A program made the translations under genes and the position numbers. From positions 22,913,406 through 22,977,405 of the forward strand of contig OZ020514.1 of assembly GCA_963971425.1 (NCBI GenBank): a stretch of 64,000 bases of DNA, given 5' to 3'. This DNA is from Bryoerythrophyllum caledonicum. Taxonomy: Eukaryota; Streptophyta; Bryopsida; Pottiales; Pottiaceae. Below the pieces are notes generated by a model that was not told the origin of the DNA, ran no database searches, and worked only from the letters and a program-made list of their open reading frames with translations. Below, in pieces: positions 3,290 through 31,432 of the stretch; position 1 is the first letter of the stretch, and the number at the start of each line of letters is the position of its first letter.

Positions 3290-3823
3290 TATTCTCGAGC
3301 TGAGGATAAAATTCTTGTCACGGTTCACTGGTCATGTAAAAGACGTTTGATTCACTAATTTTTGTAAGAATTCCAACCAATTTATCCTGGACCCGAGAAT
3401 AAATACAAGAAGAAAACTGTGGCAAGAAGTATAGTATCCTACAGCCGAGGGTAGATTGACCTGGAATTTGTTGATAAAAAGCACTAAGGTTCCAAAATCA
3501 TGCTTTTTGTAAAGAAGTCATATATATAATATATGTGAAATATATATTTGCCCGTTACACGACAATACTTGGCATCACGAATAAAACCATAGCTGAAAAA
3601 ATGATTCCTTGTTTATCCTTGAGTCGTGGATAAGTGGCTTCCAAATCACGATACATTTAACGACTTAAGGAACATGTATCCTCGACTCCAGGATAAAAAA
3701 TTAATGAATCCATGAATTTCGAGCATTTACATGTAAATAGTTATCCTCGACTTGAGGATACCAGGACTCACAATCTAATGTCATTTGTCATGAAGAAGAA
3801 TATCCATCCTCGACTCGAGGATA
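3290..3823. repeat. PAL-A cluster: seven copies of a 19-bp palindrome
   Basis: Seven copies lie at 3290-3308, 3383-3401, 3435-3453, 3614-3632, 3677-3695, 3742-3760 and 3805-3823. The consensus is TATCCTCGACTCGAGGATA, a perfect palindrome apart from the central base. Each copy has a few substitutions, and TATC..GATA arms are the best kept part. The cluster ends 20 bp before the first recognisable exon of gene A. No coding frame is kept across the cluster. This is either an upstream region or a lost intron-rich 5' end. Confidence 0.85.
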
Positions 3824-3842
3824 GGCCACAAATTGATTTCTA

Positions 3843-4213
3843 ATGACTATGTGGTCATACATTCTGGAGATGGCCAATGATCTAATGGATATTGTAGACG
3901 ACTACGACTATTCAACAGAGGAGTTATTTATTGAGAGGTTCGAAAATCCGTTCGAATCGACCCCCTTCATCGACAACGTGGTGGAAAACTATGGCACACT
4001 GTGGGCGTTTCGGGATGTAGTGTGGACTTGGTATCAAAATCCGGGAAGTTTGTGCAGATAACGATCAAAGTAAGTGACAAAGTCCTGAATGTGCTTCTGA
4101 ACCAAAACAAGAGAGTGACTTTTGTCGAGCAGCATCAGAGGGAGTATATCGTGCTCGGAATTCAAGCTTTCGATGATGCAAGAGCTGATTTTCCCCACTA
4201 CCACTGATTGTCG
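3843..4213 (+). pseudogene. Gene A, N-terminal segment
   Basis: Two overlapping frames read through this stretch. The first (3843-4061) is acidic and contains MDIVDDYDYSTEELFIERF. The second (to 4207) contains the hydrophobic/charged run KFVQITIKVSDKVLNVLLNQ. A frameshift or intron near 4010-4070 separates them, and CAAA|GTAAGT at 4069 is a possible donor. It fits in style with the first segment of gene B (25043-25405), but the sequences are not convincingly alignable by eye. No family was recognised. Confidence 0.35.
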
Positions 4214-4589
4214 TCAAGGTGGGTTCATATCACAAGCAATTCGACTTCTCGGAGTTGCTTGAATGTGTTGTTCAAAATGGGCAGGGATCGCTAAAGGAGG
4301 CATTCGAGAAGTACTTGCCCTCGACAAATGACGATGCTGTAAAGGTGAATATGCGATTAGTTTGAATTCATCAACTTCTTTCAGCATTTGCAGATTGGCC
4401 GGTTCTTGTCAAAGCCACTATACGTTGTCGACCTCGCCCACTTGGTGCTAATGGAACCAATCCATCGGGTTCATCTACACCTCAAACTTCCAGCCGAGCT
4501 CCGCTAAGAAGGCCGTCAACAACAACTGCAACGGCTGAAAAGCCCTCCTCAAAGAAGAGGAAGTCCACTACTGTGGAAGCTCCACCTCG

Positions 4590-5243
4590 ACTGTAACGAG
4601 GGCTGCGATTCCGAACAAAGCCCAAAATGATCCGCGAGTGGATTTTGAGGTAGTCACCGAATTGCAGCGCCTGTTTTGGGAGGAATGCAAGGGGTGCTTC
4701 TCGTTTGATACTTCAACATATTCGGTTGGAATCGAGCAGCACATTGTTGCAAAAGCCCAATTCATCATTTAGGGAATGGAAGAGGGCATTGTGTTAAGCA
4801 CCATGGACTTCCTCATACAATTTTGCAAAATTGATCAACGCCAAAAGATCTTTGTTTGCCCAGTCAATGCGGATGGTGAGCCTCTTCAGCAGAAGCCCAT
4901 GTCTTGGGACGATATCAAAAAGGGCAAGTTCATGCTAATCAATGGACAATATAGCGTGGAGGCCTCCAGGCGTCTACAACACATCGAAAAGTGCGGTGCA
5001 AATCAAAAGAATGTTTTGCAGCGTTGGGGTGCATACGTAGTTTGGTCAACAAATCCAGTGAAGTTGCAGAGGATTTCCAAATTCTACAACGACACCAACT
5101 ACCTAGACCATGCTCAGCTGACATGGAGGAACCAGATCTTAAGTTGCCTAAGAATTTGGTTCAACTTGGGATGACCGAGTTACTAGCAAGGAGAGGGCGC
5201 AACTCGCGGCAATGCCGTAGTTTTCGACCAGGAGAAATTCACG
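4590..5243 (+). pseudogene. Gene A, ParB-like segment
   Basis: One frame runs from about 4590 to the donor ACG|GTAAGC at 5243/5244, interrupted by TAG at 4770, TGA at 5172 and TAG at 5187. It contains KIFVCPVNADG, then FMLINGQYSVEASRRL, then VLQRWGAYVVWSTNP and KLQRISKFYNDTNYLD. Gene B has the same order with FFGQHSVAASKAM and KLRKISAYYNRVNHLL. The GQ(H/Y)S..AS box after a beta-strand resembles the G-H-H-R-x-x-A box of ParB/sulfiredoxin-type domains, which is inference. The conserved iS..YN..N block downstream is a family signature. Confidence 0.5.
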
Positions 5244-5263
5244 GTAAGCATTTGCTCTGAAAG

Positions 5264-5282
5264 TATCCTCGAGTCGAGGATA
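5264..5282. repeat. PAL-A palindrome in a gene A intron
   Basis: TATCCTCGAGTCGAGGATA, perfect arms. It starts 20 bp after the 5' splice site at 5244 in the intron that follows the ParB-like segment. The homologous gene B intron has PAL-B 29 bp after its donor. Confidence 0.9.
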
Positions 5283-5389
5283 CTTCTTGATACAAAACAA
5301 CTTCCATTACAACCCTCTTGCATGTCTTCTTCATTTTGATTGTTGTTGTTTAAAAATTTGACATGTGTAGGTTTCCTGTATTGTAGTTG

Positions 5390-6286
5390 TTCTCCAAACT
5401 TATTGTGAACCGCTTCCAAAACATCAACCCCACAAAGGAAGGGAAGCAAGTGAACAAGTTGTCAGACATCACGAACGAGATTAAGGTGATCTCATTACCT
5501 GATGACGTTCTCAAGCCGTGGGAAGATTTTCTCGAAAATCACACGAAAGGCGAGATCATCAACCCAGACACGATGGTCATGTATAATGAGGCTAGAGGTT
5601 TCAGAGCCTCTCCCATCCATCGTGAATTTTTCAAGATGTTAAGCCACCTTTCCGATAAGGACTTACGGGACCTGTTCACCTATGTGGTAGACAATGAAGG
5701 CCCAAATGGGTACCTGAAAGTCACGCTTCGGCGGACAAGCGTGGTTCAAGGGTCCTACTATCACTACGAGTGGACAGATCGCCGAAAGAGGAAGCGCATT
5801 GTCTTTCAGGAATTGATCGCAATTAATCCTTCCTTGAAGTTTTTGATGCCAGACGGGTCCACAAACAACGAGGTGTGGAAAGCGTGGGAGCAAGAACACT
5901 GCATGTCTTCTGCGATGTAGAATATGCTCCTTGTCCGGCCCGACAAGGAGTTCTTCGCCATGAGGCTAATAAATGTTGGGAAACTTAAGCGTGCATCTCA
6001 GTTGGTGGAGAAGTTTCTGAACGTGTTTCTAATCTTTCGGATGTTTTTGTACGAGAAGAGCCACATCGACCCGATTGTTGGACCATCAAAGCTTCACGAT
6101 TTTGATAGGGAGAAAATGGAGTTCTCCAAATATTTTGATCCGCTTGCGGAGGACAGAGTGTGGTCCCTTGGTCTCTTTGACCTTCGACAGGTCCCCACAT
6201 GGTCTTCCAAGGACTACTCATCCAAAGAGCCCTACTTCTTTGCATTTCTGAAGACCTTGAAGATGCAGAGAACGGGGTTGTCTACA
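5390..6286 (+). pseudogene. Gene A, methyltransferase-like segment (first half)
   Basis: A single frame with one internal stop (TAG at 5918) runs to TAG at 6287. Conserved blocks shared with gene B are NEIKVISLPDDVLKPWEDF, the HREFFKMLSHLSDKD block, and the D(R/Q)RKRK box, then VEKFLNVFL and LGLFDLRQVPTW. Gene B has LLDWDAPYSYY where gene A has LLVRPDKEFF. In gene B this looks like motif IV (D/N-P-P-Y) of N6/N4 amino-methyltransferases, so gene A has lost it. The acceptor is probably near 5380-5390. The segment stops at the edge of the inserted GC-rich repeat element. Confidence 0.5.
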
Positions 6287-6494
6287 TAGACGGACAGGGG
6301 CCCAAAGACAGCGGACGGACGGACAGTAGGACGAACGGACAGGACGGACAACACTTTTTGACGGACAGGACGGACAACACTTTTTGGCGGACAATTGCGT
6401 ATAAAAAGAAATTACAAAACCCTAAATCAAATTTTCAACTTATCCCCTAGTAAAACACGTGTGCCGACACGTCAGACCGCTTTCCACGTCACAT

Positions 6495-7395
6495 CATACA
6501 GTCGGGCGCGTACCTAGCAGGGCCGTGCCCGTACCCAAAAAAAATTTAAAAATAATAAAAATAAAATAAAAATAAAAAATAAAAAATAAATTTTGTACAC
6601 GCCCAGCCCTTGTAAGCATGCGCCCGACCTTTGGATCGGGCGCGTACGTACAAGGGCTGGGCGCGTACAAACAAGGGCTGGGCGCGTACCATCAAGGGCT
6701 TGGTGCGTACGAACAAGGGTCCCGCACGTACCAAACAGGGCCCCGCGTGTACGCGAAAAAAAAAAAAATTTTTTTTTTTTTTTTTTTTGCACGCGCCCAA
6801 CCTTTGTAAGCATGCACCCGACCTTTTGGATGGGGCGCATACGCACAAGGATTGGGCGCGTACAATCAAGGGTTGGGCGCATATGAACAAGGGCTACGCG
6901 CGTACCAAACATGGCCGCGCGCATATGCCAAAAAAAATAAATTTTAAAAATAAAAAATTTGTACGCGCGCGGCCCTGTAAGGTAGGCGCGTGGCTCTTTT
7001 AGGCACGCGCGGCGCCCCTTAAGGTACGCTTTGGCCCCTTGGTGTACGCGCCCGGCCCTGTAAGGTACGCGCCCGACCCCTTTAGAGACGCGCCGGACCC
7101 TTTTAGGGACGCGCCCGTCCCCTTAAGGTACACGTCCGACTCCTTCTGACTCCTTCAGGCATGAGTGAAAGCTCTTTAAGTACGCGCCCAACCCTTTTCA
7201 ATACGCACCCGACCCCTTTAGGTACACGCTGGAGCCTTTAGATACACGCCCAACCTCTTTTTGGTACGCACTTGATCCTTTCAAGTACGCGCACGACCCA
7301 ATGGGTACGCGCCCAACCTTTTTTAATATGCGCCCGACCCTTTTTAATACGCGCCCGACCCTCATTTAGCGAATGCGCGCGCGCGACCGAATGGG
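6495..7395. repeat. GC-rich short-period array, left block
   Basis: The block has dozens of 20-35-bp units of the type GTACGCGCCC(G/A)ACC + CTTT, in both orientations. In its left part, modules of about 195 bp start with an A/T tract (6540-6592 and A13T22 at 6756-6790). A hairpin follows in which CAGCCCTTGTA and TACAAGGGCTG face each other around GCGCCCGACC/GATCGGGCGC. From 6990 on it decays into simple one-orientation units. Confidence 0.85.
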
Positions 7396-7689
7396 TACGC
7401 ACCTGAGATTATGGGGCAAACAATCGAAGGAGGATCACACATTAAAGGGTCAAGCCCACAACTTGGAGGGTTGCGCGTGTGCGCTCTAGAGGGCCGCACA
7501 CTTTTAATCAAAGAAAGACAATAGATGACATTGGTGAAAAGGAATCAACATTATATATATAAGGGGTGGACAAAAGCTTAGGAAAGGTGGGCACAAGGAG
7601 GAATGAGGCTTATACATGGTCCACATCTTCATTATGCCACTAGTAATATTTCAACGAGATAAAGGAATTTTTAAAACACAAAATAGTAG

Positions 7690-8570
7690 GGGACGAGTTC
7701 TATTTGTGTTGCCCAGCCCTCGTAGGTACGCGCGCGTACCTACCAGAGCCGCGGGCCTACGCCAAAAAAAAAAAAAAAATTTTTTTTTTTTTTTAGCTTA
7801 TGCGCCCAACCCTTGTACACACATGCCCGATCTAGAAGGTCAAGCGCATGTTTACAAGGGCTGCGCTCGTCCCTAGAATAAAGAAAATCGCACGCGCCCA
7901 TTTCTTCAACGTACGCGCCTGATTTAAAAGGTTAGGCGCATGCTTATAGGGGTTCGGCCCATACTTCAAGGAGTTGGGCGCGTATCTAAAGAGGTTCCGC
8001 GGGTACCTAAGGAGGTAGGGCGCATACTCCAAAAGGTTGGATGCAAACTTAAAAGGGTTGGGCGCGTGCCTAAAAAGGCCGCGCTCGTACCTAGCAAGGC
8101 CGCGTGCGTACCTATTGAGGCCGCGCGCGTACGCCAAAAAAATTTTTTATTTATTTATTTATTTTTTTGGCGTAGGCGCCCAGCCCTTGTATGTACGCGC
8201 GCGATCCAAAAGGTCGGGCGCATGCTTACAAGGGCTGGGCGCGTTCAAAGAAATTTTTATTTTTATTTTTATTTTTTTTGGCGTACGCGTGCGGCCCTGT
8301 CCGGTACACGCGCAACCCTTGTTTGTACGCGCCCAGCCCTTGATGGTACGCGCCCAACCCTTGTTTCTACGCACCCAACCCTTGTATGTACGCGCCCGAT
8401 CCAAAGGTCGGGCGTTTGCTTACAAGGGCTGGGCGCATACAGAATTTTATTTTTAAAATTTTTTTTTTTTTAACGTACGCGCGCGGTCTTGTCAGGTACG
8501 CGCGTGGCCCTCTTAGGTACGCGCCCAACCCTTGTTCGTACGCGCGCGACCTTCTTGTCGACATGTCAGC
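7690..8570. repeat. GC-rich short-period array, right block (mostly inverted)
   Basis: This has the same unit family as the left block. The modules around 8171-8470 (GCCCAGCCCTTGTATGTACG, then the GATCC/GGTCGGGCG hairpin, then an A/T tract) read in the opposite sense to those at 6593-6990. A long A-then-T tract (7763-7795) lies between. The Arg/Gly/Ala-rich reading frames on both strands are by-products of the repeat. Confidence 0.85.
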
Positions 8571-8709
8571 CACGTATTTGCCTTCGTGGAAGTGGATAAA
8601 TTGATTTACCTCTAGTCATGGTCAAACCAGCGTTGACCCTTATCGGACGGACAGTGAGACGGACGGACACTACCGGACGGACGGCCGAATAACCCTGGCA
8701 GAGAAGCAA

Positions 8710-9134
8710 ACCCACCCTAAACTCTCCCTCTATTTGGATGTGGATAACTTCTTCCGACCAGCAAGCCATGCAAGCTGAAAAGTATGCGGAGAGAAAGATG
8801 TCCAAATATGTGTGCCTTTAGTTAAGGTACATGCCTTCCGCATATGAGAGGCTGAATTTAGGGACATCGAGGTCGAAGTGTTCTGAGGTTTACCTTCTAT
8901 TCCTCATAAGGGACGACCATTCTGAGTCTCCTTCGCTACTGAAGATGGTTAATCTGAATTACTCTGCCGTGGATTCTCCATACTACACCAAAAAATATAA
9001 GTATTTGGAGGCATGCTTTGCAGTTCACGGCTACGAGTTGCGGATGGAGTTCTACCTTGAGCTCCTATTAGCCTTCTACAAGCCCGCGAGCAAAGTTTTC
9101 GGAGTTTACTATGGCTCCAAGTTGGTGCTGGCGA
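8710..9134 (+). pseudogene. Gene A, methyltransferase-like segment (second half)
   Basis: The frame containing MPSAYERLNLGTS, YELRMEFYLELLLAFYKP and VFGVYYGSKLVLAS ends at donor GCGA|GTAAGA (9135). Gene B (28403-28725) has NELRMEFFIKVLELFCKRR and VVQLFGRTKLLTAS at the same place. The last block resembles motif I (F-x-G-x-G-x-x-x-x-A) of beta-class amino-methyltransferases, which in that class follows motif IV. The glycine spacing is imperfect, so catalysis is doubtful. A GTACATGCC at 8827 may mark the acceptor side. Confidence 0.5.
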
Positions 9135-9166
9135 GTAAGATGATTGATCCCCTTCATTACTAAGTT

Positions 9167-9286
9167 TATCCTCGGGTCCATGATAAACCCGATGAATCAC
9201 CCATTCGCATTATTCTGTATTAGGTTGTTCTGTATCTTGCCTTGTCATGTATCCATTAGTGTCTGTTTATCCTCTCGTCAAAGATA
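9167..9286. repeat. Two PAL-A palindromes in one gene A intron
   Basis: The copies lie at 9167-9185 (TATCCTCGGGTCCATGATA) and 9268-9286 (TATCCTCTCGTCAAAGATA), both inside the 230-bp intron 9135-9364. The first starts 32 bp after the donor. The homologous gene B intron (28726-29010) holds three PAL-B copies. Confidence 0.8.
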
Positions 9287-9364
9287 ACTCTCATGCTAGG
9301 CTCTCGATTTCTGATTGCTCTAATTGTTGTATTTAACTCATTTGTTTTGTCTTGTCTTTTGCAG

Positions 9365-10987
9365 ATGTTAAAACATCATTTTACGGTCTGGTAGATAGGG
9401 ACTATCGCATGTTATACAAATACAATACGAAAAAAATTGATAAGTATGACATAAACGACTTTCTCCATAAAGATTGTCCGTATGCTGGCCCCCTTCCACC
9501 GAATTCCGATGCTCAAGAATCAGCACCATCCGTCAATACTTCAGACTGCAGGCCCTCAAGGACCGTTGCCGCTTGCACAAGCTCTGCCCAAAGGACTTCA
9601 GCGACTGCAGCTGCAACGGCCTCAACCTCTGGAACCGAAGCTCCCATCCATCGACCTAGAGCCAGTGCAATTTTTGGTGTTGGTACGTCAAGCCGCGAAC
9701 AAAGCGATCTCTCTGGCACTCAAATCCGTCTGGATTCAGTCCGCATCGACGAAGTGCCTACGGCGGATGCCGACCCTCCACTCTCGCGCCAATCTCCTGC
9801 TCCGCCAAATCCCTCGAAAGATTTCGATGAAGATACGAAGGAATTGGATACTTATGGGAGTAATATGGATGTGAACCTCTTTTCCTTTGGACCCGATGCG
9901 GCCGGGCCATCTTCTCGATATGCTGATGATGAAGGCAAATCACCAGTATCATCATCCTCTGTAGACAACGTTGAGGTGCTCCCTTGTGAGGTTCCTTCCT
10001 CAGATATTCCTAGTCCACAAGGGGACGCCTCTGCTGTTTTGGAGCCTCCATATCAAGAGGCACCACAAGCTGATGGGGACAGGAAGCAGGATGATGCCAT
10101 CATCCTCCTTTCAGATTCTAGTGACGACGAAGGCCTGAGACCTCATGTGACTCGCCGATCGGATGTTCTTTCTCCTGGAGAAGAAGCTCCTTTGCCAAAG
10201 GTTTTGATTGAGGCTTCCGACTTCTTTATCAATGTTGCTGGTGAAGCACTGCCCCCTGAAGAGGTTGTGAAGTACAAACCTCGTGGTGATTTTTATCAGT
10301 ATCTGGCGTACAAATGCCTAATGGAGGAGAAGGACAAACAGGAATTGTTGGACCGCTTGGAAGAGTCCAAGCGCAGGCAGGCAAAGATGGAGACTGCTCT
10401 TGAAAAGGAGAGGATGGAGTTTGCTTTGGAGAAGGAGCAGATTGAGGGGACTATTAGGGCTGAGCTTCAGCTACAAATGAAGGCAGACCTGGCCTGGATG
10501 TACCTGAGGAGCCCTATAAATACGGGGGCAACATCATCTAGCCCTCCTCCCTCTGCGGTGCCTGTGAACACAAGTTATCCTCGCGTCGATGATAACTCAG
10601 GTTCTGGGCTCTCTACTCCCTTGGAGTCTTTGGCTACATTACCTCAGAGTTCGCCGTCTATTCTTGTTCTTGAACCTTCCTCTGCTGATCACCAACAATC
10701 AATTCCGGGGGAAGCACCTGCGTACGCGGATGTTACTAAGGTGCCCTCTCCAAGCAGAAGCCCTGCTATGGAGTATCCTCGACCCGAGGATACGCCGGGT
10801 GTTTGCCTACACCAGAACCCGCGTCCAGTCCCTACTCCCCTTCAATAGTCTGAGGAGTGCGACATAGAGGCCTGCGTTGTCGACGTTCATGTAGTGGCTG
10901 AGGATGTCTATATGGTGGAGGAGGATCAAGTGGATTACGAGCCGTCACCTGATGGACCTAGAAACGAAGCGTCTAACTCTGATAAGG
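9365..10987 (+). pseudogene. Gene A, acidic linker and coiled-coil exon
   Basis: The exon begins after CTTTTGCAG (9364) and is open to TAG at 10846, then coding-like to a possible donor at 10987 (GATAAG|GTTGGC). It starts with TSFYGLVDRDYRMLYKYN, which may close the methylase-like region. A Ser/Pro/Thr/Asp-rich linker of about 250 residues follows, then FINVAGEALPPEEVVKYKPR and a charged helix of about 80 residues (KDKQELLDRLEESKRRQAK onward) that reads as coiled coil. Two PAL-A palindromes are in the exon (10576 and 10774) and encode YPRVDD and YPRPED. It is the longest open frame in the window (498 codons). Gene B keeps a similar acidic linker plus coiled coil. Confidence 0.55.
10576..10792. 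repeat. Two PAL-A palindromes inside coding sequence
   Basis: Copies at 10576-10594 (TATCCTCGCGTCGATGATA) and 10774-10792 (TATCCTCGACCCGAGGATA). Both keep the exon open and fall in the same codon phase, giving YPR(V/P)(D/E)D. Confidence 0.85.
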
Positions 10988-11220
10988 TTGGCTAGTTCTT
11001 TTATTCATTTTTTTGAGGCTATTTTACAATTTGTAGCCGTGTATTTTTTGAATGACTATTGATAGTCTCCAATAGGTCTTGTATGGGTGTGTTGGATTGC
11101 ACGCATCCGATCCATATGAGTTTTAATGTACATTAGGCGGAGTGTACATATTTGTAAAAGCATATTGCTTATAATTTATTGAATTGCTTAATAATTCAGT
11201 TTTCTTTGATTGTTTTCTCA

Positions 11221-11362
11221 GATGAGAATGGATGATATTGTTCATCGACCTGTTGCATTGAAGCCTCGGATTGGGAATGATTTACGGAAGTCGCTATGTG
11301 GAGAAGAAATCATGCGATTTGTGATAATTCCTTTGCATATTGATCAATGTGCATTTCATCAG
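11221..11362 (+). pseudogene. Gene A, small internal exon
   Basis: This is bounded by an acceptor-like TTGTTTTCTCAG (ends 11220) and the donor CATCAG|GTAATT (11363). It encodes MRMDDIVHRPVALKPRIGN and then LCGEEIMRFVIIPLHIDQC. No counterpart was identified in gene B and no family recognised. It is assigned to gene A by strand, position and splice signals only. Confidence 0.4.
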
Positions 11363-11456
11363 GTAATTTTCATTGACTTTAGTGTGTGTTCGTCTTGTCC
11401 AAGGATTGTTTGCGGAGGAGTTTGTCCGTTGTCCTCAACCGGCGGCCACACAAGTG

Positions 11457-11990
11457 GCTTAATATTGTTCTGGATATTAATGGCATCCTGTGCGAGACAC
11501 AGCATGCCCCTGGGTTGTCTAGAGGCTTAGGGAGTCAGACAGCGTATTCTTGCACCGTCCCTACGTACATAGGTCCCAAAGTTGTATATACTCGCCTTGG
11601 AGTTTGTGCGTTTCCTGGGGACATCCAAAACATTACGAACATTGCCTGCACAGTCTACATGAAGGATCTTGGCACTGAAAAGGATATCTTTTTGAAGACT
11701 TTGTCGAACCATTTTCTTAATTGATTGGGTAGTAAATACGCTTCAACAAATATTTTTTTCATTGACGATAGCCTTATTAAGCACATGCTTGATTTGTCCG
11801 AGAATGTCCTTGGATTTTAACTTAGTCGCACAAACATGATGGTATCAAAGAGGATTCGGTTCTAGTGGAGGAACTGTTGCTATATCTTCTTGGTCTTTAT
11901 CTCTTGGGAAGCGGTCTAGTAGAATATTGGTCCGTACATCTCACGGGTTGGGACATGTTCTGTAAATGATTCGAAGACATGTGGTCTATA
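11457..11990 (+). pseudogene. Gene A, FCP1-like HAD phosphatase segment (deleted)
   Basis: The segment opens after the acceptor-like GGCCACACAAG with WLNIVLDINGILC, HAD motif I in the FCP1/NLI-phosphatase style, with Asn in place of the second Asp of DxDx(T/V). The stretch that carries motif II in gene B (IITIWNSTM) is missing: the reading jumps from GPKVVYTRLGVCAF to YMKDLGTEKDIFLKTL. Motif III survives downstream as FFIDDSLIKHML (11750-11790), after stop TGA at 11722, and a tail GLVEYWSVH matches gene B. So this copy cannot encode a working HAD fold. Confidence 0.6.
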
Positions 11991-12009
11991 CACCGATATC
12001 CTGAATGCA

Positions 12010-12294
12010 ATTGAAGCCTCTATTTTTCCATTGCCACTGTGGCCTTGTTCGATTCTCAAATCTCTGCGTTTGAATTTGGAGAATCGAACTCTTGCAAAGC
12101 GCATTTTCTATGGCAGTTTGAAGGATGCTCCTTACTCATACTTGCTAATGGTGCATTTATGTGTTCACCTCGTTAATACACTGTTGATTCATTCTTTTTG
12201 TGTCGTTCCTAGATTGATGTCAAGCAGCATTGCACCCATACAATTTAGCTTCACTAAGCCAATTTATATTTGGTTGGATGGTAAATGTGCTTAG
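12010..12294 (+). pseudogene. Gene A, post-HAD segment
   Basis: The frame contains SLRLNLENRTLAKRIFYGSL and then KDAPYSYLLMVHL. It aligns with gene B RLNPDNCTPAKYILYDGLRN followed by ATYPRSLTVRV (31830-31975). The function of this block is unknown. It is recognised only because the two paralogues keep it. Confidence 0.45.
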
Positions 12295-12540
12295 TAAATG
12301 TACCCTTGAGCATTTAGCTCTATTCAACCTGAAAGACACTTGGTTGGATCTTAATGTTATTGACTTAACATATGTTGTTTAACACTATTTGGCCTAAAAA
12401 TAGATTTGTTTGAATTGTGTGTGACACCTTTGTGCAAGAATCCTCAAAAAAACGTCTCTTCACTTGCATTCTCTTGGAGAATAGCGCTAAATCCAAATTG
12501 TCTCCTTTAGATCCTACCTGCCGCAACTCGGTCCCCAAAC

Positions 12541-12681
12541 CAAACGTTGATGAGGTGCGTAGGCAAGGATTGCTACATCTTTTAGACAACCCATTGATGC
12601 AAGAGAATGGTTCAATGTAGACTCGTCAACGTAAGAGGGCATTTTTTAAGTCCCGTATAGAGGCTTATGGAGGAACTCCCT
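12541..12681 (+). pseudogene. Gene A, C-terminal exon
   Basis: The conserved end of the protein: VDEVRRQGLLHLLDNPLMQE, then a stop (TAG at 12618) replacing the Trp of gene B, then RAFFKSRIEAYGGTP and the natural stop at 12679-12681. Gene B has the same 46 codons without the stop. The close match at the very end shows the two genes share the same 3' boundary. Confidence 0.65.
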
Positions 12682-12689
12682 AGATTATT

Positions 12690-15600
12690 TTATCAATCAT
12701 GATATGATTGTGTTTTACCTTGGGACAAATGAATATTGCAAGTGATTTTTTTTATGAAGTTTTCAATAAGCTTGAATTTAAGAATATGCTTTTATTTTTG
12801 TAACCATTTTTGTGACATTTGAATATTTTTATCCTTCCTTGCAGTAAAATATTACATGTTGGATGCATTGTCTCTATACTTTGCCCCTACAAATGTCTAT
12901 TAAAATCTATATTTCAAGGAGCATAAACCTTTTAAAGTCGTGGAAATATCTCAATACAAAGAATATGGTGTTAGAACTTACCTAGCAAGGCATAGAAGAA
13001 ACTGCACTTACCCAAGAACGGACTAGAGCTCCTGAAGCTAACCTTGCTAGAAATGAAAAAAATGCAAGGAAGGAGGATGCATATGGCAATCCTAGATAAA
13101 GATGATGGCAAATCCATCATGGCCAAGCTAGCCTAGACCCTCCACTTGAATTCATTGCACTTTCCAATTGCAAATTAAGGAACCGCCATCATTTGAATCT
13201 TGATTTTGAATCTTGAATAAGACTCCATGAGAAACTGACATTGCTATTAGACAAATGTCTTAGGGACTTGGATTTCATGATGTTGTCCTTGACGGTAGGG
13301 AGTTACTGGTGAAGGAAGAATGTTGCACCCAAATATAGAAAGAGATGCAATGGAGCCGTTGGTCACCTCCAAGTGCTACTCATAATATGAGTTTGCTCCA
13401 TCTCTCCCTCTCCATGTGTCTCTATTTTCATTGATTGTTGAGCCAAGGGACGTTAGTTGGTGGTTTAGAAGCGAAGGGACGTGATAGGAGGTACATAGCT
13501 ATTAGATCCTACTGAAGTTTATAATAGAAAACTGTTCTAAGGTTAGTTTTGATTGGCTATGGATGGGGGGGAGAGTTTGGACACCATTGATTTTGAAAGG
13601 GAACTCAATATAAGCATCTCACTATTAACTAGGTGTGAGAGCGGAAGTAGTTCAATTTTGCTCCTAATCCGGCTTGATTATGAGGTACCGATAGAGCTTG
13701 AGGTGGGATTTAGAATTACGACGTGGCGACTATTGCAAATGGTGGTTCAATTTAGGCGTACAAGTGGGTATTCGCTATGTACTTACTCGTCTTCGCAACC
13801 ATGTTCAAGCTTGAGATGCTAGTGGGAACCACCACCGTGGTAGACCTCTATAACATCTCCATTTAGGACTTAGAGTTGTTTCTTGTGCTCTTGTATTTCC
13901 TAGAAGGATATACTTCAACGGCCTTAAAGAGTTGCTACAAACGCCGGTGGAGTTTGAAGGTGTTGCGGGCACTCATTTTAAATAGTTGTTTGATGCGTGC
14001 TGCAATTACTAAGCTAGCTTACAAGAGCCCATGATTTGTGCCAACATCAAAAATTTCTTGACCTTGGAGAACTGTTCACCGCCAGTATGCGTAACAATAC
14101 TGGCGGCAAAGCACGTCATTCATCTTCAGTGCCAACGCAATGCAAGATTGTCGATACTACCTGGACATTCTTGATCACTTGTCCAAGGAAGACCACATTC
14201 AACAATATGAATGGAATAGACATGAGCACATGAATGGACGCGTGCATACTTGAATCAATTCCAAGAGGATAAAGGCTTGGATCCAATAGTGTAGAAGGAC
14301 TAAAGGTGGTGTAATAGTTGATATATAAATGCTAGGTCTAGATTATAAATGTGTATTAATAGTACAATTGTAGTTATGACATTATTCAGTGTTTGGCAGC
14401 ATATAAAAAATCAAATGTTCTAGGGAGTAGAGGTGTAGTCTGAATTTGTTCTTTGGAAGACTAAATGGCAACTGTCAGTCTAATTGTGAGGAGTTTTTTA
14501 GAGCTTGATTACATTATATTATCTGTTATTATCATTATCAGACATGTTTGCGCACGAGTGAGACGATCATGTCAACAAAAAGCCATGACATTTGAAAACA
14601 AATGAAGTTTCCATATTTCAAATACATGTCAAGGATCAAACTTTTAGTGGATGTAGGATTTGCAAGCTTTCGATTCAGGATGCAACTATATACAATGCTT
14701 GTGTGATGGATACCATAGAACTTGTAGGCGAGACAATATATTAGTACTTGTAGTCCAAGCTCAAGTTTAGATTCTCAGCACTCTCAAACGATCAAAACAA
14801 CTTAAGTATATCTGCATCTGCCTCGTTGTCTATGTATCTACATACACGCAAATCAAAATGACAAGAAGGGATTGTAATAAAAGCACGTATGGATTTCCCA
14901 TTGGAATAAGTGGGGATTTTTTTACTGTGCTAGCAATACAATACAATAAGTGGCAACAATACAAGCACAATCAGATTCTCCATTAAAAGAATCCTTGAGG
15001 AAAGACTTTAGTTTTGCATTAAATACAACTGTCAACCATCAACTAGACAATGTCTTAGCCAATTGATTGGCATGCCTGAATAAAATTCCTTGCGTTCTAT
15101 ACAAGTTTGTCGAGAATGGTTTGGCCACAATATGAAACATACATCAAATTAAATTTAGCTGATAACATACGTAGAGAGGCAAAGGCATCAAGAACAATTG
15201 AATTGGGCTTTGACAGTGCTTTGATGAGCATATGAAGGAATGTTGAATCCTTTCATGGACCCCACTCTGGGGGACTCTATCGTTCATAGCTTGTAAGTCC
15301 GATGTGGTGAAATTATAAAGCACGATAGAGTCATCAACCTCCATTCCAAAGTCTTTGAGATCGGCATTGGTAGTATATGTAAAACTATTCTCCGGCATTG
15401 TCATGCGTACCAAGGGCTAAATCCTGAACCATTGTCATTGCCCAAGATTGAAGTGAAGTACTGTACATAGATTTGAAGATTGTAGAACAATGCAAAAATT
15501 CAACAATTCGGATATTAAAGGTGGAACTACAATGAACATTTGGTTTTTCAAATGATGATTTCGGGGGCAATTTTTGTCCAATTTGAAAGTTTTTGGTGGC

Positions 15601-20590: not shown

Positions 20591-20693
20591 CGTAGTAGTG
20601 AATATTGCGAGTATGGCCACATGTACCCCATATGACACCATCCAATATACTGTGCACATTGTGCAAATGTCCACGGTTTTTGAACAGCCTCTC

Positions 20694-22680: not shown

Positions 22681-22690
22681 TTTTTAGGCC

Positions 22691-24665: not shown

Positions 24666-24849
24666 GCATTAGACATGTACTTTAAGGTTTAGGAAATGGT
24701 AAATATGGATCTTTGATATAAATTTTTTGGATCTAAACCTAAAATGATTGGACTCCTCAAGTGGTTGGAGCGGGACTGAAGCTCGTACACGATTTATGAC
24801 TATATAATGTTGCAAAGTATTACTGACATACTTTGTATCTGGGTACACT

Positions 24850-24868
24850 TTAGCTCGAGTCGAGCTAA
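24850..24868. repeat. PAL-B palindrome upstream of gene B
   Basis: TTAGCTCGAGTCGAGCTAA, perfect. It lies 75 bp before a possible acceptor (GTATGCGTGCAG, ends 24943) of the first gene B segment. Confidence 0.9.
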
Positions 24869-24943
24869 AGAGTAACCTCTCCATCTTATTTGGATGATCA
24901 ATTCAGCAATTTAATATTTGTGCTTGGTTTCGTATGCGTGCAG

Positions 24944-25405
24944 AAATGAGAGGGACAGGATGGTAACTCAGTTGCAGCACTTCTTCCAGCAAAAGCCCGT
25001 CGACCTTGATGATGACGATGGAGACGACAACAACCACTTGGATTGCTGAGGACTTCAAAGGACCCAACAATGACATTGAAGTGGATGCTTTTGTGGGCCC
25101 TCTGGACATATAATCTTGTGTTTGGTCAGACCTTTGCTGGTGATGTCATTGAACCCCAACACATCGACTACACGACCATGATAACTGATGTAGTCCACAA
25201 AGATAACGATCACATTAAGTTGTCTTGTGTGACAACCAATGTGTCCATACAGCCACATATGTTTACTATTGTAGTGAACAATGTTGTATCTTCCTTCCCT
25301 ATCGAGGATTGTGTGGAATCACTTAGGGCGTCCAAATTTGAAGATGTAGTGGCTCACGTCAACCACAAAATCTCACTTAGAAAATGGGAGACTAGTAGTG
25401 GTTAG
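24944..25405 (+). pseudogene. Gene B, N-terminal segment
   Basis: After a possible acceptor at 24943, an acidic stretch VDLDDDDGDDNNH is followed, in another frame, by 25043-25405. That frame contains GDVIEPQHIDYTTMITDVVH and then MFTIVVNNVVSSFPIEDCVE. No family was recognised. It occupies the place of the gene A N-terminus but is hardly alignable. Confidence 0.35.
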
Positions 25406-26378
25406 CCGCGGAAGAAAGGCTGTAGCCAATAAACTCCGCATCATTCTATCTAGGATGAATACCTTTGCTGCTCTAGAGAAGGCAAAGACAATCGCGGATA
25501 GACGCCCGATATCGATTTCGATAGTTTCGGAGGCCGAGACCGGTAGCCAGGAGTTGAGTCAAGCGTCGGTATCGGTTAGAACACTAGGCGCAAGAACAAG
25601 TTAAAGCACCGTACGCAACACGCTGTCTGCTTCCCCCGTCAAGAAGCGCTCAGCTGCCAAGAAGCCGGAGAGCTCTTCAAGGAAGAAGACCAAGCTCATA
25701 TCAGAGTAGGAGTTGGCCAATTCGATAGCCTCTACACTCTCGGAGCTCCCTCATGCGCTCGAGTACGGAGAGATAGTCAACTACACCAATGTCAAAGAGA
25801 TTTACCAAAAATTTTGGACGGAGTTTCAAGGCTTCTTCCTCGGAGACAGAGAGAAGAAGTTCAAGCTTGATGTGATGAGGCTGTTTAATGCACCCCCGGA
25901 GTGGACGATCCATGCATTTGAACCTAGGGGAATGGAGGAGTTGATGCATTATTACATCGAAATGCCAATTAAGACGCAGAAGTAGACTCTCTACGTCATG
26001 CCCAAGCTCGATGTTATGCCAACAAAGGTAGAGGACATCAGCAACTACGACTTCTTTGGCCAACATAGTGTTGCAGCGTCAAAGGCAATGATAAACGGCA
26101 ACGTCCCGGAGATAATAAGAAAGCACTTCCGAACCTAGCAGTGTTTCATTGTCTGGATGGAGGATCTGGAGAAGCTGAGGAAGATTTCTGCGTATTATAA
26201 TCGCGTGAATCACTTGCTCCAGTTCAAGTCGACTTGGGCAACCAATATCCTCGGCTCTTGTGCTTTGTGGATTCAAGCTGGGAGACCAATGCCAAAGCAC
26301 TCCGCCGCGGGCATTCACGGGTCTCACAAGTCAAGTCGAAGAACGGCAGTGGAGGTTGCAAATGACAAGAAATTTGAG
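25398..26378 (+). pseudogene. Gene B, ParB-like segment
   Basis: One frame with four stops runs to the donor GAG|GTATGG at 26379. Blocks are a basic linker KKRSAAKKPESSSRKKTK, then ALEYGEIVNYTNVKEIYQKF, the ParB-like box FFGQHSVAASKAM, IVWMEDLEKLRKISAYYN and WATNILGSCALWIQAGRPMP. Blocks from YTNVKEIYQKF onward align with gene A without large gaps. The GQHS..AS box resembles the catalytic or NTP-binding G-H-R box of ParB/Srx folds, with Ser for Arg. Confidence 0.5.
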
Positions 26379-26407
26379 GTATGGAAATCAAACCAAACTC
26401 AGGCACG

Positions 26408-26523
26408 TTAGCTCGAGTCGAGCTAACGTGTAAGTATGTGATGTATCTGTTTAGTATTGTATACAGATTCAAATTGATTATCTTGTATACTCTGAGGTTG
26501 CAAGTTAACTTGACTCGAGCTTA
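26408..26523. repeat. Two PAL-B palindromes in a gene B intron
   Basis: Copies at 26408-26426 (TTAGCTCGAGTCGAGCTAA, perfect) and 26505-26523 (degenerate, TTAACTTGACTCGAGCTTA). The first starts 29 bp after the donor at 26379, in the intron homologous to the one holding PAL-A at 5264. Confidence 0.85.
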
Positions 26524-26609
26524 CTTCCAATAATCGAACACTACTTGATTTGAGAATCTTCTACCCTAATGATATACTTATTCGACCCCATTTTTGTTTT
26601 GTGCAACCA

Positions 26610-27536
26610 TTTCTTAAAGCGGTTTGTGAGCGCTTCACAATGATCGACGTTGCGAAGAGTCAGCCAAAGCTCAAGAAAGGCGGAAAGGCAAAGGGGCTCT
26701 TGATTACGAACGAGGTGAAGATCATCATTGCGCCCGATGAGACCTTCAAGCTCTGGTCAGATGTCATCTCCTCGGCGGCGCACGGCGACCTCATCAACGA
26801 CAATTTGACTTCAATGCCCTTGGCGAAGTTGAAGGACGCCAAGTCTTGGGTCCTGGAGAAGGATGGGATGCTGTCGCACGAGTTCTTTAAGTTTCTCGGC
26901 AACATGACCGAGGGCGATCATGCGAAAATGTGTAAGAACATTCTGAATCGATCAAGGCCATCGCAAAAATTGCCTTACCCTAAGGTGGTTGTGAAGCAGC
27001 CGAATTCTGTGGTGGAGGATTGCTACACTGCCCGGGACTTGGTCGATCAGAGGAAGAGGAAGGAGGTCGCTCAAATGAAGCTACAAGTGATCAAGCCGGA
27101 GCTGGGCCTCTTCAACAGCACATGAGCGTACAATCGAGCCAACTGGCGGAAGTTCAAGAAGGACAACAACGTTAGCAAGGCTTCAAAGAGTGCCCTCTTG
27201 GATTGGGATGCACCATATTCATACTACGCCAATACGAGGCAAACGCAATTTTGCAACTGCAAATGTGAAGATCTCTCTCCGTATGCAAAGGAGTTCTTCA
27301 GAGTCTTCCTTGATGTGCGGTCGTAGTACGTTCCACTAGAGAGGGCCTTGCACTTTTGTTCGTACAAGGCGTTGACAAATTCGCTCGGGACATGGCCCTC
27401 GGATTCATGACGCAACCTAGGCTGCAAAGTGAAGCTCGGCATCATCGACTTCCGGAACATCCCTAGTTTCTTTGGGATGGCAAGGTCGTCGTTGGAAAAG
27501 CCCTTCTTCGATGAGTGCATGACGATGTTTGCATAA
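26610..27536 (+). pseudogene. Gene B, methyltransferase-like segment (first half)
   Basis: The frame starts near AVCERFTMIDVAKSQP and shares with gene A the block TNEVKIIIAPDETFKLWSDV, the HEFFKFLGNMTEGD block and the RDLVDQRKRK box. LLDWDAPYSYY (27195-27225) resembles motif IV of N6/N4 amino-methyltransferases. The segment ends with LGIIDFRNIPSFFGM and KPFFDECMTMF at TAA 27534. Stops TGA 27123, TAG near 27327 and TGA near 27408 break it. The order motif IV first, motif I-like block in the next exon, fits a beta-class methylase. Confidence 0.5.
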
Positions 27537-27544
27537 AAAGTACA

Positions 27545-28402
27545 GCCCCCACTCATCTGTGAAGCACTGTAGTAATTGAGACCTTTTATTATATTACCAT
27601 TTGTCAAATCCTTTCTGATGGTAAATAACGAGTGATGTGACGAATTATGAAAACCATAAAGTGATAATTACAATTAGTCTTGTATGACTGTTGTAATTCC
27701 CCTAGGTCTAAAACTGAGATGAGTGGATAGAGGGTGAGGTAAAATGCATACAATTATACTATTTGTCTGATAGAATTGCCGAGTGAAATTAAGTCTATAA
27801 TGTGTGAAATAAGGATTGATCACCCTTAGTCATTTAATTATAAGGCAATAATAATTTTTCCCAAAAGCAATTTATGTCATTGTAGTATGAATTGAAGCAT
27901 TAAAAGATCATGTGGGTGAAGCATGACAAATAGTGAAGGTAAATTGAGAAGAAAAGAATTGCTAAAAGAGAGAGCAATGGTGAAGATGGAAGAGTAAGAC
28001 CAAAGAGCGAAGAGTGGGCCGAGAGAGTCTTGAGAGTTTATATTAAATGACCATGTTGTCATAAGTTGGGCTGGATGCCTTTTAAATTAAAGTTTGACCA
28101 AGTGGCCATTAAGTCAAGCTAAAGAAAAAGAGATTGTTTGTATGTGTCATGAGATTGACAACATAAAACAAGACCATTTGCCATGAGGAAGTATTAGTGA
28201 GAGAACACATAGATTTGATAGCAGAGGGTTATCAATAACAACAATTATAATGAGATATAATGGTTGGGATTGGTTATGATGCATTGATTAACATGTGACC
28301 TTATTTATTAAAACGATAGACTCAACTAAGCCTCCCTAAGACCCCCACTAGGAAATTATCTTGGATTTATTTATATTTACAAGACAAATTTTCCCTCTAC
28401 AG
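27545..28402. other. Long AT-rich gene B intron
   Basis: No coding signal. It occupies the place where gene A carries the GC-rich repeat element (6279-8705). It ends in a polypyrimidine-rich acceptor TTTTCCCTCTACAG at 28402. Confidence 0.55.
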
Positions 28403-28725
28403 ATGTGCTGCAGTCAACGTATCTTCCCTCCGAGAACGAGCCCTTGGGGGGATTTGCCCCAAAGAGCAATAACGCTCTCGACCCTATTAGCCTCCTCTTC
28501 CTCTTCAAGAAAGAGCTCACGCAGATCCAGGCCATGAAGAAGACCTACGCATTTCCGAAGCATGTGTTGCACACAAAGCTTCGCAAGTACAACGAGCTGG
28601 TGTACCCGATGAACATGAACGAGCTGAGGATGGAGTTCTTCATCAAGGTCCTGGAACTCTTTTGCAAGAGGAGAGAGACAGTTGTGCAACTGTTTGGCAG
28701 GACGAAATTACTAACAGCGAGTGTA
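28403..28725 (+). pseudogene. Gene B, methyltransferase-like segment (second half)
   Basis: A clean exon between acceptor AG (28402) and donor GTA|GTAAGT (28726), open in one frame without stops. It reads VLQSTYLPSENEPLGGF, PKHVLHTKLRKYNELVYPMN, NELRMEFFIKVLELFCKRR and VVQLFGRTKLLTASV. The last block is where a beta-class methylase would carry motif I (F-x-G-x-G), here FGRTK. Gene A has the homologous exon at 8710-9134. This is the best preserved exon of the family. Confidence 0.6.
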
Positions 28726-28742
28726 GTAAGTTTTCCTGCAGT

Positions 28743-28979
28743 TTAGCTCGAGTCGAGCTAAATTGTTGATACCTTCTTGACTTGTGTATGGATTGATTCA
28801 TAGAAGTCGTTCTTGTACTATTTAGAGTAGCACTTTAGCTGGAGTCGAGTTAAAGTGCTGGATTAGACTTGTTAACTTTTGTATAGGTGTTAACAATCGC
28901 GTCGTATCCTTCAAAAATTAAATAGCTGACTTTTAGTATCTGTATTCTTTTGCATTCACTTCAGGTCAAATCGAGCTAA
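28743..28979. repeat. Three PAL-B palindromes in one gene B intron
   Basis: Copies at 28743-28761 (perfect TTAGCTCGAGTCGAGCTAA), 28835-28853 (two mismatches, arms extended to CACT..AGTG at 28831-28857) and about 28960-28979 (degenerate, again flanked by CACT and AGTG). The first starts 17 bp after the donor at 28726. Confidence 0.85.
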
Positions 28980-29010
28980 AGTGTAACTTCTCTAATCCAT
29001 TGGTGTCCAG

Positions 29011-29716
29011 ATGTTGGATTTGGAGGCATTCTGCATCTCCCACGACACTGATGAGTCGGACCTCGACGACGCTACTGAGGTTGCGTTGACATTGGATTGG
29101 TCCGATGTCGTCGTTGGTGCATATCACGTCAAGAGGGAGATCTTCTCCGAGCTTGGCAAGGCCGTTGCCAAGGGGAAGGGAAAAACAAGTGTTGACCTCG
29201 TCAATGGAGAGGAGGATGTGGACCCGAGCCCCTTGAGTGTGTGCCCAAGCTCGAGCACGGCCACTGCGGATGATGAATTTCCTGACGACTTCGATGACGC
29301 CACTCCGCTGGAGTTTCGAAGTGGCCCTCGATCTGAAGTTGGAGACATAATCGATTCCTCGCGGCAGCGACTCGAGTTCTGAGAGTTGGATTCGCGGGAT
29401 ATTTTCGACAAGCCTCATTCAGCTCCCACCTTGGGCGGGTCATCTGTTCGGCCTGCGGCTAAGAAGGGGAAGGTCGCTAACGCGAGCGGCCGCTCTCTGT
29501 TGGCTTTGGCGAGGAGCGCTTAGGACAATAGCAGGTTGATCACCCTCAAGAAGAAGCTTGAAGAGGAGGCCACCTTGCGGAAGTTGATGGGGCAGCGGCT
29601 GGCGAAGCGTGACGAGGAGTTTAGGAGCCTGCAGCTCAGGCGTGAAAGAGATGAAGATGGACGAAGAGCAAAGGCATGCCGACATGATGCTCATGCTAGA
29701 GAGATTCATGACGGCT
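29011..29716 (+). pseudogene. Gene B, acidic linker and coiled-coil exon
   Basis: It begins after TTGGTGTCCAG. An acidic linker (SDLDDATEVALTLDWSDVV, then DDEFPDDFDDATP) leads to stop TGA 29380. The same frame resumes with PAAKKGKVANASGRSLLAL, a second stop at 29521, and a charged helix LKKKLEEEATLRKLMGQRLA reading as coiled coil. It matches the organisation, not the exact sequence, of gene A 9365-10987. Confidence 0.45.
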
Positions 29717-30054
29717 AAGTTGCCAACTGTCGCCACGACACCACCCGTAGTTAATGCTGCAATCTTCCGGCCTCTCCTCCCAGCGGCAGAAGGGACTGGG
29801 AGTCTGTCCCGCAATTAACACCTGTCGTCTCTGGCGGGTTCCTCCCTTGTCTCTATGGGGGCTTAATTGCTTCTTGTTCCTCCATTCTCGTCAAACCGCC
29901 CCTCTTCCCCTCCGAAGTCGCCCGCTCGGTCGTTATGTGTCGAAGATGTCCCCAGCTCATCGTCAGGTTAGTGTAATGTAGTTGCGAGTGTATAGAGGCA
30001 GAACATTTTGTAAATGTACAAGTTTGTACTCCAATTTATTTGTTAATGTTACAG

Positions 30055-30443
30055 TGCTCAGCGAGCATTTCAGCTCGACTTGACCTAAACTGCTTGACAC
30101 TTGACAACTCTGCCTTGTATCAGTGTCCTATGTGTGCATCAGCTGATAGTTTGAAGTTGTTGAATTTTCTAGATCTATGTATCGGTGATGACGCGATCGC
30201 TCACCCGGTCATAGATGAGGTCGTCCAGACTGCAGTCCCAGTTATAGAAGAGGTCGTCCAAGCTACCGCCGTGCTTGTAGAAGAGATCAATTTTGATTTT
30301 GCTGTCCCAGAGCCACCTCTTTTTGTTGCGGAACCGGGCCCCGAAATGGTTGGGAGACACTTGGAACCCCTTGGCAACCTGTAGGGTTCGTTGGGATCAA
30401 TGGGAGTCTGAGACAAGTTCCTCCAAGATGATGAAGTTCTTGA
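30055..30443 (+). pseudogene. Gene B, acidic exon before the HAD segment
   Basis: Begins after GTTACAG, holds a degenerate PAL-B at 30069-30088, and encodes an acidic repeat-like run (VIDEVVQTAVPVIEEVVQAT) with a stop at 30382. A possible donor is GAG|GTATTC at 30444. Gene A has a comparable acidic stretch (SEECDIEACVVDVHVV) just after its stop at 10846. Confidence 0.4.
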
Positions 30444-30661
30444 GGTATTCTTCTAACACTTTTTACACTCCACTCTCCTCCATGACGCTCCCCCCCGTTT
30501 GCCTCTTTCGTTCTACGTTTTGTTGACGAGTTGTTGTTAATGAATCTGTCGTAATATTGTTTGTTCTCCTGTCGTTTCCAACCACGTCTACGAGGCATCA
30601 ATAAGTGGTGCCAGTAAACTAGAAGAAATACCTAGAGTCCTATCAGATCTCCAGGGCAGGT

Positions 30662-31314
30662 GGTTGAATGTTGTGCTGGACCTCAATGGGATTCTCTGCA
30701 CGAGTGAGCCTGCGTGGCAGGCTAGGGGACTCAGGAACTCTGACTCGTCCATACACTCGGCTTCGTTGCCGATCGAAGTAGGCCCTAATATAGTCCGACA
30801 GCGCCCAAATTGTGCTCAATTCCTAACAAAGTTGTCTAAGTTTGCCATCATCACGATCTGGAATTCGACGATGACATCTACAACCTCGCAGATATGTAAA
30901 TATCTTTTTCAACATTGTCCTTCGTACCCTCTCAGGATCTTTGGTCAGGAGAATTGCAATAGGGTTCCCGAGCGTAGAGTCAGTACCAGAACAATCTACA
31001 TGAAGGAATTTGGCACTCAAAATGACATCTTTTTGAAGACGTTATTAAACCATCTCTTCAATAGGTTGGATCGTGAGCATACTCTGGCAAATATGTTTGT
31101 CATTGAGGATAGCCCGATTAAGCACATGCTCAATTTGCTAAAGAAAATACTTTTACTTCCATCATGGTCGCACAATCATGATGACGCAAGAGAGGATCCA
31201 GTACTGCTGAAGGAATTGCTGTCATATCTCTCTGACCTTCATCTATTTCCGGGTGGTCTAGCGCAGTATCGGGCCAAACATCCCTCGAGTCGGGAAATGT
31301 TCTATAACGATTAG
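30662..31314 (+). pseudogene. Gene B, FCP1-like HAD phosphatase segment
   Basis: This is open for 216 codons after the acceptor-like ATCTCCAG. HAD motif I is LDLNGIL (Asp at 30679-30681, and Asn rather than Asp two residues on). The motif II region is IITIWNSTM. The YMKEFGTQNDIFLKTL block is followed by motif III FVIEDSPIKHML near 31096. The order and spacing fit FCP1/NLI-interacting-factor phosphatases, which dephosphorylate phosphoproteins such as the RNA polymerase II C-terminal tail. The D-to-N change would remove the general acid, so the domain may be a binding module. The end GGLAQYRAKHPSSREMFYND is shared with gene A. Confidence 0.65.
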
Positions 31315-31412
31315 AAGACGTGTGGTCAGTTTGCGAGTATCTCGAACGCAATCCAAGCGTCTCAGAATCTCCGCTCTTAATGCCGCTAGGAACGCTTAGA
31401 TCTCAATTACAC

Positions 31413-31432
31413 TTTCGGTCGGATAGAGCTAA
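31413..31432. repeat. Degenerate PAL-B palindrome
   Basis: TTTCGGTCGGATAGAGCTAA keeps the right arm GAGCTAA and parts of the core. It lies 98 bp after the HAD frame of gene B. Weak on its own, supported by its neighbours. Confidence 0.45.

What the first reader, a model, noticed from the sequence alone, without database searches (positions are those of the whole stretch)
3290..31432. Copy-specific palindromes at conserved positions in two paralogous genes
Gene A and its flank carry 12 copies of TATCCTCGACTCGAGGATA (PAL-A), and gene B about 8 copies of TTAGCTCGAGTCGAGCTAA (PAL-B). I saw neither in the other gene nor elsewhere in the window. Core CTCGA(G/C)TCGAG is shared, but arms differ. In two homologous introns the first palindrome lies 20 (A) and 29 (B) bp, and 32 (A) and 17 (B) bp, after the donor. 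Keeping place while changing sequence, with both arms changed together, suggests concerted turnover: a mobile palindromic unit, a homing or binding site, or selection on an RNA hairpin near the 5' splice site. The multi-domain gene with ParB/methylase/phosphatase-like parts makes a self-recognition system conceivable, but that is speculation.
Basis: partly seen in the sequence, partly recalled or inferred. Interest (0 to 1): 0.88.

Follow-up and report, generated by a model that had tools for sequence, protein, structure and literature searches.

The report
Transposon families with own palindrome tags
Two families of a large jumping gene in a moss-like genome each carry their own version of a short mirror-image DNA word near and inside their genes, probably docking sites for a protein that each element makes for itself, so that it can recognise its own copies.

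Summary
PAL-A occurs 12 times (<=4 mismatches) only around gene A, PAL-B 7 times only in gene B; chance gives about none. Both genes are decayed second genes (ORF2) of large terminal-inverted-repeat DNA transposons in a 437-Mb, moss-like genome; the first gene is DUF7869, transposase-like. Exact PAL-A occurs 867 times and PAL-B 4,292 times genome-wide; a control arm pair, none. Two complete 19.4-kb PAL-A elements sit inside PAL-B sequence, and the words switch exactly at the boundaries: 36 PAL-A and 0 PAL-B inside, 0 and 39 outside. Arrays lie upstream of both genes; further copies sit at matching intron positions. In database relatives (species mostly unnamed) read through the same intron, the core TCGA-N-TCGA stays while arms differ between the two main clades. 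Decay within PAL-A is one-sided, unlike an RNA hairpin. ORF2 has a methyltransferase-like fold without the usual catalytic motif, an unproven ParB-like motif and an NIF phosphatase domain lacking one catalytic aspartate. Best reading: family-specific dyad binding sites for an element-encoded regulator, working like Arabidopsis VANDAL/VANC anti-silencing but built from unrelated parts. Binding and anti-silencing are inferred, not shown.

The parts
3290..3823 (.). PAL-A array upstream of gene A (sites 3290, 3383, 3435, 3614, 3677, 3742, 3805)
3837..11960 (+). Gene A: decayed ORF2, limits approximate (ParB-like exon about 4611-5243, methyltransferase-like exons about 5387-6286 and 8699-9134, disordered/coiled-coil exon about 9365-10990, start of NIF exon about 11383-11645; from about 11650 the sequence is B-like)
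5264..5282 (.). PAL-A, perfect, intron 1, 20 bp after the inferred donor
9167..9286 (.). Two decayed PAL-A sites (9167, 9268) in intron 2
10576..10792 (.). Two PAL-A sites (10576, 10774) inside the coding exon, read as YPRVDD and YPRPED
11650..12972 (+). B-like 3' end of the gene A copy, with a B-like terminal inverted repeat ending at 12972
24850..24868 (.). PAL-B, perfect, upstream part of gene B
24945..31402 (+). Gene B: decayed ORF2, limits approximate (ParB-like part about 25710-26378, methyltransferase-like parts about 26560-27540 and 28402-28726, NIF exon 30544-31311)
25267..25270 (.). Unoccupied site corresponding to the place where a 19.4-kb PAL-A element is inserted in a related PAL-B copy (L029/L030)
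26408..26523 (.). PAL-B sites in intron 1 (26408 perfect; 26505 decayed)
28743..28979 (.). PAL-B sites in intron 2 (28743 perfect; 28835, 28961 decayed)
30070..30088 (.). PAL-B, decayed
32472..32497 (-). Right terminal inverted repeat of the PAL-B element (AACACCATATTCG type, 5 mismatches to the PAL-A type)

Best explanation
The palindromes are family-specific dyad-symmetric protein-binding sites of a large DNA transposon group. Shown: the elements are two-gene TIR transposons (DUF7869 transposase-like gene; ORF2 with a methyltransferase-like fold and an NIF domain) with palindrome arrays upstream of both genes and copies in ORF2 introns; in the stretches examined PAL-A and PAL-B segregate exactly with the elements; the core is constant and the arms are symmetric but differ between the two ORF2 clades, also among database relatives. 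Inferred: the element's own ORF2 product, probably a dimer, binds the palindromes through its methyltransferase-like and/or ParB-like part; the arms give family specificity and co-evolve with the protein; binding keeps the element's promoters and introns open against host silencing (as VANC does), or otherwise activates its own genes. The altered catalytic motifs of both enzyme-like domains suggest binding and recruiting rather than catalysis.
Against: No binding, expression or methylation data. The binder could be the transposase or a host factor; neither was tested. ParB-like identity is unproven (no Pfam or PDB match; model pLDDT 37.6). The best Foldseek E-value for the methyltransferase fold is 4.1e-3. 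Within the A clade TATCC and TATCG-type arms intermix on the tree (3 and 4 changes; the second no better than shuffled labels, 500 of 500), so arms are not fixed at fine scale, although some decodings are ambiguous. Fetched loci were chosen for carrying PAL-A, and the species of most database relatives is unknown.
Confidence: 0.57

Rival explanations
1. The palindromes are binding sites of the element's transposase (internal repeats used in transposition or its own regulation), not of ORF2.
For: Many DNA transposons bind internal repeats with their transposase (established knowledge); the longest array of E1 lies next to the transposase-like gene.
Against: In E1 the first array lies about 4 kb from the nearer TIR and the second about 7.7 kb from the other, and sites recur in ORF2 introns and exons. 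How far the transposases of PAL-A and PAL-B elements differ was not tested.
Confidence: 0.18
2. They are binding sites of a host transcription or chromatin factor that the transposons exploit as enhancers or insulators.
For: Position upstream of both genes and in introns fits enhancer use.
Against: Arms differ between families living in the same genome and nested in one another; a single host factor would favour one word. No copies outside the two genes' surroundings in the window.
Confidence: 0.14
3. Selection on an RNA hairpin near the 5' splice site, or a homing/mobile palindromic unit.
For: Similar place a few tens of bp after two inferred donors; one variant, TTAGCTCTANTAGAGCTAA, is changed on both arms (5 compensated pairs in PAL-B, 1.2 expected).
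Against: PAL-A: 216 pairs changed on one side, 2 compensated, 2.16 expected. PAL-B: double changes that do not pair are in excess too (11, about 2.4 expected), so its excess probably reflects duplicated sites. Many sites lie upstream of the genes; sites travel with whole elements.
Confidence: 0.05
4. Neutral by-product of tandem duplication in non-coding parts of the elements, without a function.
For: The first array contains a tandem duplication of about 605 bp; several PAL-B arrays repeat at 47 bp.
Against: The same core occurs behind the same exon in distant database relatives (19 decodings against 0-2 in controls) and in arrays, introns and exons of both families; dyad symmetry is kept while arms change.
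Confidence: 0.06

Closest known systems
VANDAL transposons and VANC anti-silencing proteins of Arabidopsis (Hosaka et al. 2017, PMC5735166; PMC10398659)
   Same: Multi-gene DNA transposon; short family-specific words repeated in introns, intergenic and terminal non-coding parts, often in tandem arrays; related families use different words; element-encoded second protein as binder (shown for VANC, inferred here).
   Different: VANC words are 8-9 bp (YAGTATTAY; AGTTGTCC/AC), VANC21's in same-orientation arrays, and the word palindrome does not occur in the main text of either paper; here 19-27-bp dyads. VANC carries DUF1985/DUF287; here methyltransferase-like fold plus NIF. The transposase-like gene here is DUF7869.
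Beta-class N6/N4 DNA methyltransferases (M.BceJIV, CcrM, M.RsrI)
   Different: No DPPY: the stretch judged to correspond reads DFRNIPG in P0122 (read off, not from a residue-level superposition); 9-12% identity in those matches; no Pfam methylase match.
FCP1/NIF phosphatases (PF03031)
   Same: Clear Pfam match, E 6.8e-18.
   Different: The catalytic DxDx(T/V) motif (recalled) reads DLNGI, DINGI or DLSGI in the copies looked at: the second aspartate is missing.
Fungal DNA transposons that encode TET/JBP dioxygenases (PMC12730594; seen only as a search listing with the start of its abstract)
   Same: DNA transposons carrying an epigenetic accessory gene.
   Different: Different enzyme and hosts; nothing on family-specific palindromes in what was seen.

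Membership tests
VANDAL/VANC system | Mutator-type transposase (VANA; superfamily recalled) | tested here: not met
   The only Pfam family listed for the 583-aa ORF is DUF7869, E 6.7e-42 (protein 1); no Mutator family listed for the other transposase pieces.
VANDAL/VANC system | VANC protein with DUF1985/DUF287 | tested here: not met
   Pfam scans of the ORF2 pieces list neither.
VANDAL/VANC system | Family-specific short words repeated in non-coding parts of the element | tested here: met
VANDAL/VANC system | Element protein binds its own word and lowers DNA methylation of its own family only | not testable with these tools
   Needs binding and bisulfite data.
Beta-class N6/N4 DNA methyltransferase | Fold | tested here: met
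Beta-class N6/N4 DNA methyltransferase | Catalytic (D/N/S)PP(Y/F/W) motif | tested here: not met
   DFRNIPG at residues 277-283 of P0122, placed by the order of strands in the model; D277 is nearly invariant in 93 rows.
ParB/Srx-like domain | Fold or profile match | tested here: inconclusive
   No Pfam or PDB match; model pLDDT 37.6; only the INGQHSVAAS motif, recalled as ParB-like.
FCP1/NIF phosphatase | Profile match | tested here: met
   PF03031 E 6.8e-18, 2.5e-11 for window B.
FCP1/NIF phosphatase | DxDx(T/V) catalytic motif (recalled) | tested here: not met
   DLNGI/DINGI/DLSGI in window A and B, L029, L030, L032.
TIR DNA transposon | Terminal inverted repeats, target-site duplication, unoccupied site | tested here: met

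The most novel reading that the evidence does not exclude
A second, independently evolved self-versus-nonself system of plant transposons: a pseudo-methyltransferase/pseudo-phosphatase protein, possibly derived from a bacterial ParB-methyltransferase, reads a palindrome with a methyltransferase-like core (GASTC) and family-specific arms, so that each element family switches on only itself; changes of arm specificity give rise to new transposon families.
Probability: 0.38. Interest if true: 0.88.

Novelty: new variant of a known kind. Interest (0 to 1): 0.74.

Why it matters
The only case of sequence-specific anti-silencing by a transposon protein that I know of and met in my searches is Arabidopsis VANDAL/VANC. 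A second case with a different transposase, a different protein and long dyad words would show convergent evolution of self-recognition, and it offers many natural pairs of protein and DNA word in which specificity changed while the core stayed. That makes the co-evolution of a DNA-binding protein and its site directly testable, and could yield family-specific epigenome tools.

Tried and rejected
ParB-like exon: Pfam, PDB by sequence and by profile, AlphaFold with three rows (pLDDT 37.6): no support, left as a motif only. The methyltransferase-like exon found nothing convincing in Pfam or in PDB sequence; only the fold search spoke. A composite 933-aa ORF2 query found no homologue, probably because database proteins are single exons; the exon query found 94. 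The scans of viral contigs (A4, A5) and genome contigs (A4) found no relative. I first took DWGPP in gene B for the methylase DPPY motif; in the model it lies before the matched range 240-455, so I dropped that. A survey of all ORF2 families in the genome was not possible because the genome search was mostly unreachable; patterns for TTAAC arms and TTAGCTCTA arms did not complete. The PAL-A TIR at <=3 mismatches has 0 matches in the window; the related ends appear at 5 mismatches. Literature: DUF7869 in 0 papers; moss/palindromic/transposase one paper, unrelated by title; the palindromes as letters in 0 papers; ParB+FCP1+transposon in 0; (12 of 26 listed; 8 of 57; 4 of 4): no listed title or abstract start describes these elements; those papers were not read. 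The species was not identified; moss-like rests on homologues named Ceratodon and Physcomitrium. The transposon superfamily was not identified; the 4-bp duplication recalls Sola (recalled, not tested).

Dropped before counts: 22 of 41 hits lie outside the exon tails and were not counted (6 are a recurrent coding string EYRxDT; 4, in P0126, P0148 and P0149, look like PAL-B near the C-terminus but those proteins lack the anchor motif). Of the 19 counted, P0179 and P0213 are probably chance. Some 5-residue decodings fit 16-32 arms. The tree used 38 of 94 proteins, with labels partly set by eye (P0134, P0211, P0212) and P0162 put with B although its arms end in AAC.
Full report
Observation. At <=3 mismatches PAL-A has 10 sites in window 1-12020 and none in the other three parts, and PAL-B has 7 in 22601-32500 and none elsewhere. 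Genome-wide, exact PAL-A (central C or G) occurs 425+442 times and PAL-B 2165+2127 times; the reversed controls give 0. A made-up arm pair round the same core gives 0; arms TATCG, suggested by some database relatives, occur at one place.

What carries them. The window is C1:22913406-22977405 of a 437-Mb genome. From the listed PAL-A places (only the first are listed, all on contig C1) I fetched 20 stretches and later 8 more, flanks included. Aligning two 30-kb stretches gives complete elements of 19,441 and 19,468 bases, with TIR AACRCCATATTCATTAAAATGAGACA (one mismatch at one of the four ends) and duplications AATA and CCTT. Both sit inside PAL-B-bearing sequence; the window's gene B is the unoccupied counterpart of the first, and L034 that of the second. 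PAL-B-type ends are related (AACACCATATTCG..., 4-5 mismatches), one at window 32497. Gene 1 is a DUF7869 protein (E 6.7e-42); 309 database homologues (120 listed) include Ceratodon purpureus and Physcomitrium patens; in this genome 75 of 4,682 first-look candidates were scored, many with open frames of 937-949 aa.

Segregation. In the first 50-kb stretch the element holds 18 PAL-A and 0 PAL-B and its flanks 0 and 28; in the second, 30-kb stretch, 18 and 0 against 0 and 11. These stretches were chosen for PAL-A, but the absence of PAL-B inside and of PAL-A outside was not. In E1 (<=4 mismatches), nine sites lie upstream of gene 1, five upstream of ORF2, and six more in or near ORF2 introns and exons. 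In the six copies that I displayed (window A, window B, E1, E2, L027 and the interrupted PAL-B copy) both homologous introns have a palindrome shortly behind the exon, some decayed.

Arms among relatives. Database proteins that run on into the intron behind the methyltransferase-like exon carry translated palindromes: LARxEL and SSxRA (TTAGC arms), YPRLED and ILDSRI (TATCC), YRRVDD (TATCG), NSSRV (arms ending AAC). Their species are mostly not given. A systematic decoding found 19 hits in 59 tails (1,395 residues) for core TCGA-N-TCGA, 17 of them with recognisable arms, against 0-2 for each of 11 control cores; another 22 hits lie outside the tails. On a tree of 38 of the 94 proteins the 12 rows labelled B lie on one side of one branch (100/99); the four TATCC and four TATCG-type rows intermix, which tells against strict fixation within the A clade, or reflects ambiguous decoding.

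Symmetry. Among 219 PAL-A sites in L009-L036 and the window, 216 pairs are changed on one side, 2 on both with pairing and 3 on both without; independence predicts 2.16 paired. PAL-B (64 sites): 59, 5 and 11, with 1.2 paired and about 2.4 unpaired double changes expected; the five are one variant, TTAGCTCTANTAGAGCTAA. Of the 226 changed bases in PAL-A, 100 are C to T or G to A and 76 A to G or T to C, the latter mostly beside the centre: decay, partly as expected of methylated DNA (inference). Arms therefore differ together between families but not during decay, which fits selection for a dyad in DNA rather than pairing in RNA. In PAL-B the dyad extends to CANTTTAGCTCGANTCGAGCTAAANTG (array sites are related by duplication).

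Mechanism and known systems. The closest working model is VANC: a transposon protein that binds short words in non-coding parts of its own family and removes methylation there, with different words in related families (PMC5735166, first two of six parts read, and passages; PMC10398659, passages). Here the same arrangement appears with other parts. It works like VANC (inferred) but is not a member: transposase and protein domains differ. The centre GA-S-TC recalls CcrM's GANTC (recalled), which would fit a methyltransferase-derived reader; this is a guess.

Verdict. The elements, their words and their segregation are well supported; the binder and the effect are inferred. I found no description of these elements in what the searches listed.

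Noticed in passing
window 11614-12972: Gene A looks chimeric: up to about 11,645 it aligns with PAL-A relatives, from 11,650 to its end at 12,972, TIR included, with PAL-B relatives; recombination between families inside the NIF domain is likely.
   Followed up: partly
window 6272-8698: A 2.4-kb insertion inside gene A, flanked by CGGACGGACAG-like sequence and absent from relatives such as L027.
   Followed up: no
window 10090-10133 and homologous places in L027, L030, L032: Acidic SUMO-interaction-like motif (IILLSDSSDDE or close) in the disordered exon of A-type ORF2 copies; the motif name is recalled.
   Followed up: no
window 9337-10848; L030, L032: Palindromes inside coding sequence in one frame, giving YPRxED-like peptides; tolerated or selected in the protein.
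   Followed up: no
L031:371-2107, L030:9544-9631, L020:599-685: A third word, TTAGCTCTANTAGAGCTAA, changed on both arms, in separate short arrays near PAL-B sites.
   Followed up: partly
window 36324-37475: Copia-like gag with a zinc knuckle (recognised by eye), open for 383 aa.
   Followed up: no
P0149: A homologue of ORF2 is filed under an uncultured Synechococcales cyanobacterium; probably plant DNA in a metagenome bin.
   Followed up: no
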